Below are positions 30,445 through 37,852 of a stretch of DNA of 37,852 bases, piece by piece; positions within the stretch are counted from its first letter, which is position 1, and each line of letters begins with the position of its first letter. A program made the position numbers and the translations under genes. The notes under the pieces were generated by a model. It worked only from the letters and a program-made list of their open reading frames with translations, did no database searches and was not told the origin of the DNA. The DNA is taken from contig SVSZ01000008.1 of assembly GCA_015064025.1 (NCBI GenBank), forward strand, positions 1 through 37,852. The letters run 5' to 3'. Source of the DNA: Oscillospiraceae bacterium. GTDB lineage: Bacteria > Bacillota > Clostridia > Oscillospirales > CAG-272.

Positions 30445-30540
30445 ATGACGTGAACTCGGTTTTCGGACATAAGGCTGCTCTGTCAGCTATTCACCCACCG
30501 ATTGCTGAGTGAAACGCCAAATAAAAAGAAAGGTGAAAAA
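30445..30540 (+). ncRNA. Structured rpsO leader, probable S15 autoregulatory element
   Basis: The leader has several exact complementary segments: TCGGT (30456-30460) with ACCGA (30497-30501), GACA/TGTC closing an inner loop, and TTCAC (30490-30494), which can pair with GTGAA either at 30450-30454 or at 30509-30513. rpsO leaders in several bacteria fold into junctions bound by S15. The assignment to that class is inference; no covariance search was possible. Confidence 0.55.
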
Positions 30541-30544
30541 AACC

Positions 30545-30808
30545 ATGCAGAAAGACGAAAAGCTCGCTCTTATTGAGCAGTACGCAACTCACGAGGGAGA
30601 CACGGGTTCTCCCGAGGTTCAGATCGCGATCCTTTCCAACCGCATCAACAACCTGACCGAGCACCTCAAGTCCAACAAGAAGGACTTCCACAGCCGCCGC
30701 GGTCTTCAGAAGATGATCGGTCACAGAAGAAACCTTCTGAACTATCTGCAGAAGACTGATATCGAGCGTTACCGCGCGATCGTCAGCAAGCTCGGATTGA
30801 GAAAGTAA
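30545..30808 (+). CDS. rpsO: 30S ribosomal protein S15
   Basis: 87 residues from ATG 30545, starting [20 protein letters not shown]. The family core is [44 protein letters not shown] and [16 protein letters not shown]15 binds the central domain of 16S rRNA early in 30S assembly. The 12 extra residues in the track version come from an upstream alternative start and are rejected: AAAGGTG precedes ATG 30545 and the family begins here. It is followed by a terminator and then pnp, the common rpsO-pnp order. Confidence 0.97.
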
Positions 30809-30817
30809 AACAATCAT

Positions 30818-30872
30818 GGGAGTGAAGAGCAGCGGCAAATTGTCACTGCCCTCACTCCCTGTTTGTTTTCTT
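30818..30872 (+). terminator. Terminator between rpsO and pnp
   Basis: GGGAGTGA (30818-30825) pairs with TCACTCCC (30852-30859), with further inner pairing (GCAG/CTGC), followed by TGTTTGTTTTCTT. Because no clear promoter follows before pnp, some readthrough is likely. Confidence 0.8.
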
Positions 30873-30907
30873 CTCTCACAAGCATCAAAACTCATCTTAC
30901 GGGCGGA

Positions 30908-30998
30908 TTAGCAATTAACCATGCACCGGAGATCGGAGGTTTCCGATCCGTGGTTAAGTGCTAAACCTCCGTAGGAAAAAATAAAAAAATTACGGAGG
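30908..30998 (+). promoter_or_regulatory. pnp leader: long hairpin plus alternative ribosome-site pairing
   Basis: A long interrupted hairpin spans 30908-30964 (TTAGCA/TGCTAA, TTAACCA/TGGTTAA, ATCGGA/TCCGAT with a GGTT loop). Downstream, CCTCCGTA (30966-30973) is a perfect complement of TACGGAGG (30991-30998), which contains the pnp Shine-Dalgarno sequence. The same segment, AAACCTCCG (30963-30971), is also a perfect 9-base complement of CGGAGGTTT (30934-30942) in the tip of the long hairpin. The pairings exclude each other, so the leader can be drawn as an on/off switch. Confidence 0.7.
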
Positions 30999-31007
30999 AA
31001 CAAAAAA

Positions 31008-33128
31008 ATGAACATCACCAAAAGTGAACCGATGAACTTCAAGAACTACAAGGTGTTCAAGTACACCTATGCAGGCAGACCTTTGGTCATCGAAACAGGT
31101 AAGATGGCAGGACTGGCAAACGGCTCTGTTCTCTGCCGCTACGGCGACACTGCAGTGCTCTGCTGCGCAACCGCATCCGAAAAGCCCCGTGACGGAATCG
31201 ACTTCCTTCCCCTCTCCGTTGACTTTGACGAGAGAATGTATGCGGCAGGTAAGATCCCCGGCGGATATCTCAAGCGCGAAGGAAAGCCGAGTGAGAAGGC
31301 AGTGCTCACCTCCCGTGTCATCGACCGCCCCATCCGTCCCCTTTTCCCGAAGGATCTGAGAAACGACGTGGCGCTCACGCTCGTTGTTATGTCCGTTGAT
31401 CCCGACTGTTCTCCCGAGATCACCGCAATGATCGGTGCTTCCACTGCTCTTGCAATCTCCGACATTCCGTGGAACGGCCCCATCGGCGGCGCTTTCATGG
31501 GCTTGGTCGACGGCAAGATCGTCCTCAACCCCACCGCTGAGGAGCAGAAGAAGAGCGATCTCCAGCTCACCGTTGCAGCTTCCATGAAGAAGGTCGTTAT
31601 GATCGAGGCGGGAGCTAACGAGGTTGACGACGATACCATGTATGAGGCGATCATGAAGGCACATGAGGAGATCAAGGATCTTCTCGGCTTCATTAACGGC
31701 ATTGTTGACGAAATCGGTAAGAAGAAGTTCGACTACCCCTCCTGCGAGCTGGATCACGACATGTTTGACGAGATCTTCGCATTCTGCGAAAAGGACGTTA
31801 TGGAGGCACTTGACACCGACGATAAGAACGTAAGAGACGCAAAGATGGTTCCGATCAAGGACGCCGTTCTTGAGAAGTTCACCGAAAAGTATCCCGATCT
31901 CCCCACACAGATGGAGGAATTGATCTACAAGATCCAGAAGAAGATCGTACGCCGTTGGCTCCTTGTTGACAAGAAGCGCGTTGACGGACGTAGCATGGAC
32001 CAGATCAGACCCTTGGGCAGCGAGGTTGGCGTTCTTCCCCGCACCCACGGCTCCGGACTCTTTACCAGAGGTCAGACTCAGGTTCTTACCGTTGCAACTC
32101 TCGGCACTCTTTCCGAGGCGCAGATGCTGGACGGTATCGACAGCGAGACCTCCAAGAGATATATGCACCACTATAACATGCCCGGCTTCTCCACGGGTGA
32201 AGCAAAGCCTGTCAGAAGCCCCGGACGCCGCGAGATCGGTCACGGCGCGCTTGCAGAGCGTTCTCTCATCCCCGTGCTTCCCTCCGAGGAGGAATTCCCC
32301 TACGCGATCCGTCTGGTTTCCGACGTTGTTTCCTCCAACGGTTCTACCTCTCAGGGCTCCGTTTGCGGTTCAACGCTGGCGCTCATGGATGCAGGTGTTC
32401 CGATCAAGGCTCCCGTTGCGGGTATCTCCTGCGGTCTGATCACCGCTGAGGACGGCTCTTGGGATACCATGATCGACATTCAGGGTCTTGAGGACTTCTA
32501 CGGCGACATGGACTTCAAGGTTGCGGGTACTCACAAGGGTATCACCTCCATTCAGATGGACCTTAAGATCGACGGTCTGACCCCCGAGATCATCAAGAAG
32601 GCATTCGAAATGACGCATGCCGGCCGTGATTATATCATCGACGAGGTCATTCTCAAGGCAATTCCCGCGCCTCGTGCCGAGGTTTCCAAGTATGCTCCCA
32701 AGATGACCACCATGAAGATCGATCCCGACAAGATCCGCGAGGTCATCGGTAAGGGCGGCTCCGTCATTCAGAAGATCGTTGCCGATACGGGTGCTAAGGT
32801 CGATATCGAAGACGACGGCACCATTCGCATTGCTGCGATCAACGCAGAGCAGGCAGATGCCGCAAAGGCTTGCATCGACGCGATCGTATTCGAGCCCGAG
32901 GTTGGCGCTGTATACACGGGCACCGTTACGGGCATCAAGGAATTCGGTTGCTTCGTGGAATATGCTCCCGGTAAGGAAGGCATGGTTCACATTTCCAAGA
33001 TCGCGCCCCGCAGAATCGACAAGGTTGAGGACGTTCTCAAGCTTGGCGACGTTGTAAAGGTAAAATATATCGGACTTGATAAGAAGGGCCGTATGGACTT
33101 CTCCATCAAGGATGCGATCGAAGGCTGA
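31008..33128 (+). CDS. pnp: Polyribonucleotide nucleotidyltransferase (PNPase)
   Basis: A trimeric phosphorolytic 3'-5' exoribonuclease. The 706-residue protein has two RNase PH-like domains (first YAGRPLVIETGKMAGLANGS; second DGRSMDQIRPLGSEVGVLPRTHGSGLFTRGQTQ, with the catalytic-site SDVVSSNGSTSQGSVCG). These are followed by a KH domain (IREVIGKGGSVIQKI, about residues 570-620) and an S1 domain (GAVYTGTVTGIKEFGCFVEY, about 635-705). The family core starts around residue 9 (MNFKNYKVF). ATG 31008 is chosen because GGAGG lies nine bases upstream. Autogenous control through the leader is plausible, as known for PNPase in other bacteria. Confidence 0.97.
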   Translation: MNITKSEPMNFKNYKVFKYTYAGRPLVIETGKMAGLANGSVLCRYGDTAVLCCATASEKPRDGIDFLPLSVDFDERMYAAGKIPGGYLKREGKPSEKAVLTSRVIDRPIRPLFPKDLRNDVALTLVVMSVDPDCSPEITAMIGASTALAISDIPWNGPIGGAFMGLVDGKIVLNPTAEEQKKSDLQLTVAASMKKVVMIEAGANEVDDDTMYEAIMKAHEEIKDLLGFINGIVDEIGKKKFDYPSCELDHDMFDEIFAFCEKDVMEALDTDDKNVRDAKMVPIKDAVLEKFTEKYPDLPTQMEELIYKIQKKIVRRWLLVDKKRVDGRSMDQIRPLGSEVGVLPRTHGSGLFTRGQTQVLTVATLGTLSEAQMLDGIDSETSKRYMHHYNMPGFSTGEAKPVRSPGRREIGHGALAERSLIPVLPSEEEFPYAIRLVSDVVSSNGSTSQGSVCGSTLALMDAGVPIKAPVAGISCGLITAEDGSWDTMIDIQGLEDFYGDMDFKVAGTHKGITSIQMDLKIDGLTPEIIKKAFEMTHAGRDYIIDEVILKAIPAPRAEVSKYAPKMTTMKIDPDKIREVIGKGGSVIQKIVADTGAKVDIEDDGTIRIAAINAEQADAAKACIDAIVFEPEVGAVYTGTVTGIKEFGCFVEYAPGKEGMVHISKIAPRRIDKVEDVLKLGDVVKVKYIGLDKKGRMDFSIKDAIEG

Positions 33129-34702: not shown

Positions 34703-37700
34703 TTATTTAGGTCTGTAGCATACCCACTCTTGAACGTTCGAAATATCATTTCCGGACGGATAGCTTGTTGTTTCAAGATTTTCCGTTCTGTAGAAATAGT
34801 AGGTATAGATTAAATAACGATCGCAATAACGATATTCAGTATATCCTTCGCTTACCAAAACTTGTTCAGATTGTTCGTTCCACCAATAGTTTTTATAGTA
34901 CGTTCCATATTCCCCTACATATGGACCATATCTTAAGTGTCCGCTATTGGAACCCGTAACCTCTAACTGATAATCCAAGGTAATATATTGATTATTCTTT
35001 TCACCATAATATCCTAATGAGTATGTAGAACTGCCTCCCGTAGTTGCACTAATACAACGCGAATAGTGCCAAACTGTTTTATATACGGGTTCTATATACC
35101 TAGTCTCTACCAATCTTGAATCACTACCATACGCGGGCGAAGCAGACCATCCGCTCCATGCACCGTAATCACTCCACACAGATGTGGTATTATAGTGCGT
35201 CCATCCATCCAACCATGAAGAAGCGGAAGTTGTGTAGTAGGTTTGCGTATACGTATACTTTCTGTCTACGATCTGTGCATCCGTAGGAACATCGGACGCA
35301 CTTGCCCAATATACGATGTCCTTATCTACCCAATATGCATAAATCGTAAGATCGGTTGCGGAACTTGGGACAGTAGAATCATATACGGGATTCCCGTTTG
35401 CATCATGCCAACCCGCGAAGTTGCAGTAATCTTTTGTAGGAGTAGGAAGTGACCCCAAACTGTCTCCAAAAGTCAATGTTTTACTGGATGTAGATACCCA
35501 CCCTCCATTGGCATTGTAGTATAAAGTAAAGGTGTTCGGCGTCCAGTATGCATATACGGTAAAGTTTGTAGCGGAGCCGGGAACGGTAGAATCATATACA
35601 CAATTGCCGTTTGCATCATGCCATCCTGTAAAGGTATAGTTTGCTCTTGTAGGTGTTGGCAATGATCCAAGACTATTACCAAAAGTTAGTGCTTTAGAAG
35701 AGGGCGAAACGCTACCACCATTTGCATCAAAGTAAACAGTAAACGTATTGGGAGTCCAGTGCGCATACAAGGTCTGATTTACAAGTGCGGTTACAATCGA
35801 ATCCGCATTAAGCTGTGTTCCTCCCTCAGCTTCTGTATACCATCCTGCGAAGGTATAGTTTGCGCGGGTAGGAATAGGCAAAGCACCATAATACTGTCCG
35901 TAATATACAGTCTTGGAGGAGTCCGACACGCTTCCGCCGTTCGCATTGAAAGTAACTGTGCTTGATGTCAGCATACTGTTAAAGGTATCTTCATCAATAT
36001 ATTCAATGCCGTTTGAAGTCGTCAACATTCCTTCATTAGTGATTGTACCGCAAACCAAATACTTTCCTGTAACGTTCATATAACCCGCTACACCGGAATC
36101 CGCTTTGCTTAATGTTACATTTTTGCTAATGACAGCATTTGTACTCTTAGAGGTCAAATTGATATTACCCAAAAGCCTTACTTCGGCATTTGCAGACTCT
36201 ATAATAAGTGCAAAGCCGGGAGCGTTTTCCACAGTTACGCGACCAAGCGTAATTGCGTTAGAACTCAGTTTGATGGGGGTATCGGTATTTCCCACAAATG
36301 TAATATTGCTGATAAATGTTTCTGTTGCATTGGATTCAATCTGAAGATTGGTGAACGTCTTTCCACCACCGAACAATGCAAGATATTCAGTAGAATCGGA
36401 AACTGTGATTTTGCGGTTATCAAAAGACTCCGAGAGTTTTGTAAGATCAAGTGTAATCTTCTTTGCACCGGAGTTCAGAACCGCATTTGCAACGTCTGCT
36501 TTTGCCGCCATCGCACGAATTTCGGGACAGCCCTCAAATGCGTTTGTGCCCAAATCAGTAATATATTCGTCAACTACAAAGGTGGTAAGGCTTTCGCATC
36601 CCTTGAATGCATTTGCTCCAATCGTTTTAATTCCATAACCTATAACGGTCTTCAAATTTGTACATCCCTCAAACGCATTATCGGGGATTTCGGAAATATA
36701 TTTGGGAAGGACTATACCTGTAATATCGCAATTCCCGCTAAATACATCGGCTGCTATACCACGAACTCTAACAGCAGAATATGTGCCATCACCATTATCA
36801 ATCGACACATATTCTGGAATCACAACATTGGCACGAGTGTCAGACTCGGGAATAAAAGTAAACGGACAATTATATTCGGTAATATATCCTGTAGTTGTAT
36901 CAACAACCAAGCCTTCGGATCTTGCAGTGATTTCGGAGACAAATTCGTGAACATAATAAGGAATTTCAAAGGGAATAATTCCATTTTCACAATCCTTGAA
37001 CGTAGGGTCATCTTTAGAATAATCCATATATGTATATGTGCCTTTATCTAAAACACTATAAGAGTATGTAAAATATGAACTTGTCGCAATATCATACCCC
37101 ACGATAGCAAACACATGTACCGTGCCAGCAAGCACCAATCTATAATACCCATTTTCGGCATATGTACGTTCTACGCCTCGCGTTATTGTGGAAATAGATT
37201 CCACGGAATACTCTACTGTGGCCTCATATTCATCCGTGAGAACTTGTTCTCCGCCTTTTGTAACAGTAGAACTACTATTTTCACTGCGAGATTCAGTACT
37301 TGTGTATCCATATTTTTGAGATATTAATTCAGAAATCAAATTGGAAACTGAGGAATCATTGCTGGCTTCCCAGCTTGCTTCATATCCATCTGTGGTATTC
37401 CAATTTGCATTCGAACTACTCGATGTATCCCAATATGCAGAAGAATTGCTACTTTGCTCTGTACCAAAACTTTGAGTACGAGAACCTGCAATTTGAGCAG
37501 CTTCCCTATCATTTGATTCATATTTTAAGTTAGTATCGGTCGAAGTTCCAATGTCTATAGATCCGGAATTTTCCGTTGATCCACCAAGTGATCCACCAAG
37601 TGATCCACCAATACCTCCTGTTGCTTGCGGTGGTGTTACATTGATTTCTGGATTTATTTCGGCACTAAACGAGTCTGTATAACCAAAATTTACATTCTCA

Positions 37701-37852
37701 GAAGTTCCCACATTCAAACCAACACTCGCATTCTTCGTACTTTCGGTAGCATACGATCCATTAATTCCAACTGAATTTCCTGTCGTAATTTTAGAAGATG
37801 ATGAATTTGAGCCTCCTGCACTTGATGAAGTATTTGTGGATCGTATGCTACC
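34703..37852 (-). CDS. Large multi-domain surface/secreted protein, N-terminus cut by window edge
   Basis: The frame is open to the window end; the track's start at 37717 is a TTG and not the real one, so at least 1049 residues are visible. Using the track numbering: residues 1-150 are Ser/Asn/Thr/Gly-rich with GGSLGG repeats. About 150-300 is an unassigned beta-rich region (YYRLVLAGTVHVFAIVGYDI). 322-402 are BspA-like leucine-rich repeats (IPDNAFEGCTNLKTV, IGANAFKGCESLTTF). 586-796 are three InlB-type B repeats. 815-1004 is a Trp/Tyr-rich end with WSDYGAWSGWSAS. No LPXTG anchor, transmembrane helix or SLH repeat is seen at the C-terminus, so it may be released or held non-covalently. Such proteins are often adhesins; function here is unknown. 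The DNA is clearly AT-richer than the rest of the window. Confidence 0.8.
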   Translation of the reverse strand, partial: GSIRSTNTSSSAGGSNSSSSKITTGNSVGINGSYATESTKNASVGLNVGTSENVNFGYTDSFSAEINPEINVTPPQATGGIGGSLGGSLGGSTENSGSIDIGTSTDTNLKYESNDREAAQIAGSRTQSFGTEQSSNSSAYWDTSSSSNANWNTTDGYEASWEASNDSSVSNLISELISQKYGYTSTESRSENSSSTVTKGGEQVLTDEYEATVEYSVESISTITRGVERTYAENGYYRLVLAGTVHVFAIVGYDIATSSYFTYSYSVLDKGTYTYMDYSKDDPTFKDCENGIIPFEIPYYVHEFVSEITARSEGLVVDTTTGYITEYNCPFTFIPESDTRANVVIPEYVSIDNGDGTYSAVRVRGIAADVFSGNCDITGIVLPKYISEIPDNAFEGCTNLKTVIGYGIKTIGANAFKGCESLTTFVVDEYITDLGTNAFEGCPEIRAMAAKADVANAVLNSGAKKITLDLTKLSESFDNRKITVSDSTEYLALFGGGKTFTNLQIESNATETFISNITFVGNTDTPIKLSSNAITLGRVTVENAPGFALIIESANAEVRLLGNINLTSKSTNAVISKNVTLSKADSGVAGYMNVTGKYLVCGTITNEGMLTTSNGIEYIDEDTFNSMLTSSTVTFNANGGSVSDSSKTVYYGQYYGALPIPTRANYTFAGWYTEAEGGTQLNADSIVTALVNQTLYAHWTPNTFTVYFDANGGSVSPSSKALTFGNSLGSLPTPTRANYTFTGWHDANGNCVYDSTVPGSATNFTVYAYWTPNTFTLYYNANGGWVSTSSKTLTFGDSLGSLPTPTKDYCNFAGWHDANGNPVYDSTVPSSATDLTIYAYWVDKDIVYWASASDVPTDAQIVDRKYTYTQTYYTTSASSWLDGWTHYNTTSVWSDYGAWSGWSASPAYGSDSRLVETRYIEPVYKTVWHYSRCISATTGGSSTYSLGYYGEKNNQYITLDYQLEVTGSNSGHLRYGPYVGEYGTYYKNYWWNEQSEQVLVSEGYTEYRYCDRYLIYTYYFYRTENLETTSYPSGNDISNVQEWVCYRPK
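35330..35962 (-). repeat. Three InlB-type (Listeria-Bacteroides) B repeats
   Basis: Three units of about 67 residues each, with NANGG/DANGG starts, a LPTPTRANYTFxGW core and YAxW ends, linked by TPNTFT. The second and third units are closest, also at DNA level (shared CCGTTTGCATCATGCCA), suggesting duplication within the gene. Confidence 0.88.
37578..37610 (-). repeat. 12-bp tandem repeat encoding GGSL
   Basis: GATCCACCAAGT occurs twice in tandem, followed by a partial third unit (GATCCACCA). In frame it encodes GGSLGGSLGGS. Unit length is a multiple of three, so copy changes would keep the frame. Confidence 0.75.
37745..37852. repeat. 16-bp perfect inverted repeat ending at the window edge
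   Basis: GGTAGCATACGATCCA (37745-37760) and TGGATCGTATGCTACC (37837-37852) are exact reverse complements separated by 76 bp inside the surface protein gene. The outer side may extend past the window. Confidence 0.85.

What the first reader, a model, noticed from the sequence alone, without database searches (positions are those of the whole stretch)
30908..31007. pnp leader looks like a three-segment translational switch
Segment 1 CGGAGGTTT (30934-30942), segment 2 AAACCTCCGTA (30963-30973) and segment 3 TACGGAGG (30991-30998, the Shine-Dalgarno sequence) are exactly complementary as 1:2 (9 bp) or 2:3 (8 bp). When the long hairpin traps segment 1, segment 2 can close the ribosome site. If the hairpin is opened or cut, segment 1 can capture segment 2 and free it. 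PNPase autoregulation through a hairpin and RNase III is known in E. coli, but a ribosome-site-masking form like this is one I do not recognise.
Basis: partly seen in the sequence, partly recalled or inferred. Interest (0 to 1): 0.7.

Follow-up and report, generated by a model that had tools for sequence, protein, structure and literature searches.

The report
Clostridial pnp-leader RNA with anti-SD switch
In front of the gene for the RNA-degrading enzyme PNPase, many gut Clostridia carry a conserved RNA hairpin that is absent from Rfam; the lower part of one strand can either hold the hairpin shut or cover the ribosome-binding site, which suggests how the enzyme could switch off its own production.

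Summary
The three segments are at the stated coordinates, and half of the switch idea holds. Segment 2 (30966-30973) pairing with the pnp Shine-Dalgarno (SD) is supported: in 92 disjoint sister pairs from 184 related leaders, segment 2 fits its own SD better than the sister's (sign p 5e-4; wider anti-SD region 1e-4), and this repeats in 103 leaders outside the first set. Segment 1 is wrong: 1:2 pairing shows no evolutionary signal (p 0.54) and costs about 20 kcal/mol.

That hairpin is a conserved RNA element (UAGCA-G-UUAA / UUAA-G-UGCUA) with strong covariation. It lies before pnp in 111 of 112 model-found loci, occurs in 189 of 394 genomes sampled from the order, and has no Rfam match.

Folding predicts that losing the 5' strand masks the SD (unpaired 0.61 to 0.21; shuffled 0.50). 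Best model: E. coli-like PNPase autocontrol (RNase III cut, PNPase removes the 5' strand) plus an SD-masking step. The nuclease steps are inferred. New variant of a known kind.

The parts
30545..30808 (+). rpsO (ribosomal protein S15), the gene directly upstream
   Evidence: ORF; rpsO is directly upstream of the element in 81 of 81 relatives whose locus was checked
30818..30859 (+). hairpin GGGAGTGA...TCACTCCC followed by a T-rich stretch, probably the rpsO terminator with readthrough into pnp
   Evidence: sequence; similar hairpins at this place in genus relatives; the tool's terminator scan did not list it and no sigma-70-like promoter was found in 30480-31060
30893..30979 (+). whole conserved pnp-leader hairpin element (covariance model R1 match, 71.2 bits, E 7e-16; only copy in the genome)
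30895..30906 (+). 'segment 0': 5' strand of the basal helix, UCUUACGGG.GG, the real competitor for segment 2
   Evidence: MFE; swap test seg0:seg2 sign p 2e-11
30909..30918 (+). conserved core, 5' arm (UAGCAAUUAA here; UAGCAGUUAA in most relatives)
   Evidence: alignment A1 and counts over 184 leaders
30954..30963 (+). conserved core, 3' arm UUAAGUGCUA; its G30958 faces A30914 (G.G in 125 of 184 leaders)
30965..30975 (+). segment 2: 3' strand of the basal helix, and anti-SD (CCUCCGUA at 30966-30973)
30976..30990 (+). A-rich unstructured spacer, the loop of the SD-masking hairpin
30991..30998 (+). segment 3: extended Shine-Dalgarno UACGGAGG of pnp
31008..33128 (+). pnp (polynucleotide phosphorylase, 706 aa)
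   Evidence: full-length relatives 62-97% identical

Best explanation
The pnp leader carries a conserved cis-regulatory RNA: a long imperfect hairpin whose 3' basal strand is also an anti-Shine-Dalgarno. While the 5' strand is present it holds the anti-SD in the hairpin base and pnp can be translated (ON). When the 5' strand is lost, the anti-SD snaps onto the SD and translation stops (OFF). The most likely trigger is autogenous, as in E. coli: RNase III nicks the hairpin and PNPase, when abundant, degrades the 5' fragment, so excess PNPase silences its own mRNA. SHOWN by computation: the hairpin, its covariation, its link to pnp, the co-evolution of anti-SD with SD, and overlap of the two pairings. 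INFERRED: translation effect, RNase III cleavage, PNPase trimming, and the role of the conserved core as a protein or nuclease recognition site.
For: Covariation: 25 of 29 pairs have double-sided changes, score 0.485 vs 0.180 shuffled and at most 0.19 slid, 0/500 shuffles; RNAalifold agrees. Location: one copy in the window's genome; 111 of 112 model-found loci have pnp alongside; rpsO upstream in 81/81. Co-evolution in 92 sister pairs: basal helix p 2e-11; segment 2:SD p 5e-4; wider anti-SD region:SD p 1e-4 (Wilcoxon 1e-6), with controls apical:SD and 5' arm:SD at p>0.4; replicated on 103 leaders outside the first set (p 0.001). Compensatory helices: CCUCCGUA:UACGGAGG (window), CCUUCG:CGAAGG (L156, same genus), CCUUUCG:CGAAAGG (L158, L166, L211), UCCUUCUU:AAGAAGGA (L178), CUCCUGU:ACAGGAG (L068). 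Exclusivity: the anti-SD overlaps the basal 3' strand by at least 3 nt in 169 of 180 leaders; hairpin state more stable in 182 of 184; SD unpaired 0.61 intact, 0.21 with the 5' strand removed, 0.50 for shuffled spacers, p 5e-26. RNase III gene present in the genome. RNase III repression of PNPase is reported in several phyla (PMC8708148), and E. coli PNPase acts by digesting a short RNA that protects its mRNA (PMC10362022).
Against: No expression, cleavage or probing data exist for these uncultured bacteria. Helices of at least 5 contiguous bp over the SD are found in only 51% of leaders, so the anti-SD is clear in the window's genus and several families but not universal. Within the genus alone the swap test for segment 2:SD is not significant (mean rank 0.395, n 18). 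In the window the two states differ by only about 1-4 kcal/mol and in one sequence context the masked state wins, so an equilibrium switch without nucleases is possible. Predicted SD openness in the intact genus leaders is modest (0.44).
Confidence: 0.6

Rival explanations
1. The hairpin is a ligand- or protein-gated equilibrium switch with no nuclease step: a protein (PNPase itself, S15, S1 or another) binds the conserved core with its central mismatch and shifts the balance between the basal helix and the SD hairpin.
For: The core sequence is far more conserved than the stem around it (184/184, 178/184 identical bases at some positions) and is kept in both states (178 of 180 leaders), which fits a binding site. 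In the window the two states are nearly isoenergetic (-47.5 vs -46.5).
Against: Across 184 leaders the hairpin state is on average 11 kcal/mol more stable, a large gap for binding alone to overcome. No binding data.
Confidence: 0.22
2. The hairpin is only an RNase III processing site separating rpsO from pnp and setting mRNA stability, as in E. coli and Streptomyces; the anti-SD is incidental.
For: Same position in the rpsO-pnp operon; long double-stranded stem (median 35 bp); the E. coli leader has no comparable anti-SD.
Against: Segment 2 and the SD co-vary between sister species while control pairings do not, and masking after 5'-strand loss is far above shuffles.
Confidence: 0.12
3. One reading: segment 1 in the apical stem-loop captures segment 2 when the hairpin is opened.
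For: Exact 9-bp complement in the window.
Against: -26.4 vs -47.5 kcal/mol; no co-evolution (p 0.54); GGAGG in the apical part of only 6 of 184 leaders.
Confidence: 0.01
4. A DNA operator (CIRCE/HrcA-like inverted repeat TTAGCA...AGTGCTAA) rather than an RNA element.
For: The outer half-sites resemble CIRCE (TTAGCACTC-N9-GAGTGCTAA).
Against: Perfect CIRCE sites exist elsewhere in the same genome (two) with the canonical 9-base spacer; here the arms are TTAGCAGTTAA/TTAAGTGCTAA, 23-52 bases apart, and the DNA between them forms a covarying stem.
Confidence: 0.02
5. A transcription attenuator or terminator in the pnp leader.
For: Mutually exclusive hairpins are typical of attenuators.
Against: The second hairpin ends at the SD and is followed by an A-rich stretch and the start codon, with no T run; a terminator-like hairpin is already present after rpsO.
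Confidence: 0.03

Closest known systems
E. coli rpsO-pnp leader: RNase III processing and PNPase autocontrol (reviewed in PMC8708148, PMC10362022)
   Same: rpsO-pnp order, long hairpin between them, RNase III gene present; the 5' strand of the hairpin is the predicted control point
   Different: No sequence resemblance recognised; the E. coli leader has no anti-SD released by 5'-strand loss, and control there is described as mRNA destabilisation plus probable translational repression by PNPase binding
Actino-pnp RNA motif (Rfam RF01688; listed in PMC2864571)
   Same: Curated structured RNA in pnp leaders of another phylum, classed as cis-regulatory
   Different: RF01688 does not match the window or 18 other leaders even at E up to 10, nor any of 40 related genomes (no positive control rang there)
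Streptomyces rpsO-pnp intergenic hairpin cleaved by RNase III (PMC5872136)
   Same: Hairpin just upstream of pnp, after the rpsO terminator, with readthrough
   Different: No SD-masking alternative is mentioned in the passages read; the sequence was not compared here
Anti-SD sequester / anti-sequester switches in general
   Same: One strand chooses between a distal helix (ON) and the SD (OFF)
   Different: Here the choice is tied to a hairpin that looks like a dsRNase substrate and precedes the gene of the exonuclease that could remove the competing strand

Membership tests
E. coli-type PNPase-autocontrolled pnp leader | rpsO-pnp gene order with a long hairpin between the genes | tested here: met
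   81/81 relatives; hairpin median 35 bp
E. coli-type PNPase-autocontrolled pnp leader | RNase III gene present in the genome | tested here: met
   TIGR02191 hit over cut-off in G000:C52; 28 of 30 relatives have a match
E. coli-type PNPase-autocontrolled pnp leader | RNase III cleaves the leader hairpin in vivo | not testable with these tools
   needs RNA from cells or purified enzyme
E. coli-type PNPase-autocontrolled pnp leader | PNPase removes the 5' fragment and thereby lowers pnp expression | not testable with these tools
   needs a reporter with and without PNPase
E. coli-type PNPase-autocontrolled pnp leader | homologous leader RNA sequence/structure | not tested
   Model R1 was not run on the E. 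coli locus; only its fold and the effect of 5' truncation were compared, and no common core was noticed by eye
Actino-pnp RNA (RF01688) | match to the Rfam covariance model | tested here: not met
   no match at E up to 5 in the window leader or up to 10 in 18 other leaders; the second search did find SraG and the S15 leader in E. coli; none in 40 genomes
CIRCE (HrcA operator) | TTAGCACTC-N9-GAGTGCTAA | tested here: not met
   canonical sites lie elsewhere in the genome; the pnp element has other arms and a spacer of 23-52 nt
Any Rfam 15 family | score at or above gathering threshold | tested here: not met
   whole window; leader, lax threshold
SD-sequestering riboregulator (functional class) | anti-SD pairing maintained by compensatory change | tested here: met
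SD-sequestering riboregulator (functional class) | anti-SD and its competitor strand are mutually exclusive | tested here: met
   overlap of at least 3 nt in 169 of 180 leaders
SD-sequestering riboregulator (functional class) | translation changes with the switch state | not testable with these tools
   needs reporters

The most novel reading that the evidence does not exclude
A previously undescribed clostridial family of pnp-leader RNAs in which a nuclease-removable strand acts as the switch input: PNPase senses its own excess by eating the 5' strand of its leader hairpin, which releases an anti-SD that shuts off translation. RNA degradation itself is the signal.
Probability: 0.45. Interest if true: 0.8.

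Novelty: new variant of a known kind. Interest (0 to 1): 0.62.

Why it matters
PNPase autocontrol in E. coli is a classic case, yet how removal of a short RNA leads to repression is described mainly as a stability effect. Here evolution appears to have wired strand removal directly to the ribosome-binding site, across many gut Clostridia families. It would add a new RNA family absent from Rfam, explain how a core RNA-decay enzyme may be set in a major gut lineage, and give a simple, testable design in which RNA degradation acts as the input of a translational switch.

Tried and rejected
CIRCE/HrcA operator: rejected. Rfam families incl. Actino-pnp and S15 leader: no match in the window or relatives; the 40-genome Actino-pnp search had no positive control, so the locus scans carry the weight. 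Attenuator: no T run after the second hairpin. E. coli leader as the same switch: 5' truncation in silico does not change SD openness, though no mutational scan was done. A first rpsO search used a wrong reading frame and was redone. A first SD-accessibility run with 30 nt of coding sequence was confounded by pairing into the gene and was replaced. The choice of a 30-nt anti-SD region was made after seeing some of the new leaders; the 14-nt segment 2 test was fixed beforehand and is also significant. The model-found loci fetched were top-scoring hits, not a random sample. Model hit L144 (G202:C37) is not near pnp; it looks like a palindrome between divergent genes near a recombinase.

Full report
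WHAT WAS CHECKED. The window is G000:C48 of a draft clostridial genome. rpsO (30545-30808) is followed by a hairpin with a T-rich tail, then a leader and pnp (ATG 31008). All three segments of the finding are at the stated coordinates and are exact complements. The leader folds with -47.5 kcal/mol against -28.2 for shuffles (z -5.2). No Rfam family matches.

WHAT THE FOLD SHOWS. The minimum-energy structure is a single long hairpin whose base is formed by UCUUACGGG.GG (30895-30906, 'segment 0') with segment 2. Two states compete in the window: A, segment 0 with segment 2 and the SD not held by segment 2 (-47.5); B, segment 2 with the SD, upper hairpin kept (-46.5). If the 5' strand is absent, segment 2:SD pairing has probability 1.00.

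A CONSERVED RNA ELEMENT. Leaders of about 100 pnp relatives share the core UAGCA-G-UUAA ... UUAA-G-UGCUA. In an alignment of 47 leaders made without structure and without the window, 25 of 29 proposed pairs show changes on both sides with pairing kept; covariation score 0.485 vs 0.180 in shuffles and at most 0.19 when slid. RNAalifold recovers the same stem. In the middle of the core the two strands face each other with an unpaired G.G in 125 of 184 leaders, and other mismatches or G.U in most of the rest.

SPREAD. A covariance model (R1) finds one copy in the window's genome, at this place (the weaker minus-strand match is the same palindrome). It matches 58 of 391 genomes sampled from the class, 189 of 394 from the order and, in a phylum sample, only genomes of the same order (stricter filters, so lower bounds). 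Of 112 model-found loci fetched, 111 hold pnp next to the element; the exception is a weak hit. rpsO is directly upstream in 81 of 81 checked. Taxon names are mostly uncultured Clostridia and Oscillospiraceae from herbivore guts.

WHICH PAIRINGS ARE SELECTED. The key test swaps partners between sister species: if two strands co-evolve, own pairs beat swapped pairs. On 103 leaders outside the first set, segment 2:SD gives p 0.001. Apical:segment 2 reached sign p 0.012 in one of six subset runs there, with Wilcoxon 0.07, and is otherwise flat; I read that as noise. Within the genus alone the segment 2:SD swap test is not significant, because its leaders nearly all share CCUCC:GGAGG; there the evidence is that 18 of 18 keep strong pairing against shuffles.

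COMPENSATORY EXAMPLES. CCUCCGUA:UACGGAGG (window); CCUUCG:CGAAGG in L156 of the same genus; CCUUUCG:CGAAAGG in L158, L166 and L211; UCCUUCUU:AAGAAGGA in L178; CUCCUGU:ACAGGAG in L068; ACUCCGU:ACGGAGU in L060. Contiguous anti-SD helices of at least 6 bp over the SD occur in 42% of leaders vs 6.3% after shuffling, with 49 distinct helix sequences.

MUTUAL EXCLUSION AND LOGIC. In 169 of 180 leaders the anti-SD overlaps the basal 3' strand by at least 3 nt; the core hairpin is kept in both states in 178. The hairpin state is more stable in 182 of 184. Mean probability that the SD is unpaired: 0.61 intact, 0.21 with the 5' strand removed, 0.79 with nothing upstream; with the spacer shuffled the removed form gives 0.50 (p 5e-26). 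So the sequence is built for ON when the 5' strand is there and OFF when it is lost.

HOW IT MOST LIKELY WORKS. The stem is long (median 35 bp) and RNase III is encoded. Published work describes RNase III processing between rpsO and pnp in E. coli and Streptomyces and RNase III repression of PNPase in several phyla (PMC8708148, PMC5872136); E. coli PNPase promotes decay of its own mRNA by digesting a short RNA that protects it (PMC10362022). Putting these together: RNase III cuts the hairpin, PNPase removes the 5' fragment, and in these Clostridia the freed 3' strand masks the SD. Only the RNA architecture is shown; the nuclease steps are inferred by analogy. A binding-only switch is the main rival, since in the window the two states are close in energy.

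E. COLI COMPARISON. The K-12 leader was fetched and folded; trimming its 5' part in steps leaves SD openness at about 0.5-0.7. So the SD-masking step is not seen there with this simple test.

NOVELTY. Conserved pnp-leader RNAs are a known kind (E. coli hairpin, Actino-pnp). This family is not in Rfam, does not match RF01688, and adds an anti-SD switch. I found no description of it in the papers searched, but large unnamed motif sets from microbiomes (e.g. PMC8040213) could contain it; their supplements could not be read.

Noticed in passing
30914/30958 (window); arms in 184 leaders: A central mismatch, usually G.G (A.G in the window), sits inside the otherwise nearly invariant core helix; its role is unknown, possibly a recognition or cleavage determinant.
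   Followed up: partly
30818-30859: The hairpin after rpsO is followed by a broken T run, and no sigma-70-like promoter is seen before pnp, suggesting pnp depends on readthrough from rpsO.
   Followed up: partly
L144 (G202:C37) about 1501-1585: A palindrome TATAGCACTTAACTTTGTGC...AGCACAAAGTTAAGTGCTAAA between divergent genes near a recombinase scores weakly with the model; probably a repressor operator.
   Followed up: partly
G000:C1:1109-1135 and G000:C126:9195-9221: Perfect CIRCE elements in the window's genome, unrelated to pnp.
   Followed up: no
34703-37717, minus strand: A 1004-aa open frame with repeats resembling surface proteins (GWYT/GWHD-type modules).
   Followed up: no
L045, L052, L064, L080, L086, L087, L108: Some relatives' pnp leaders show no clear element with the motif finder used; they may be divergent forms or losses.
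   Followed up: no
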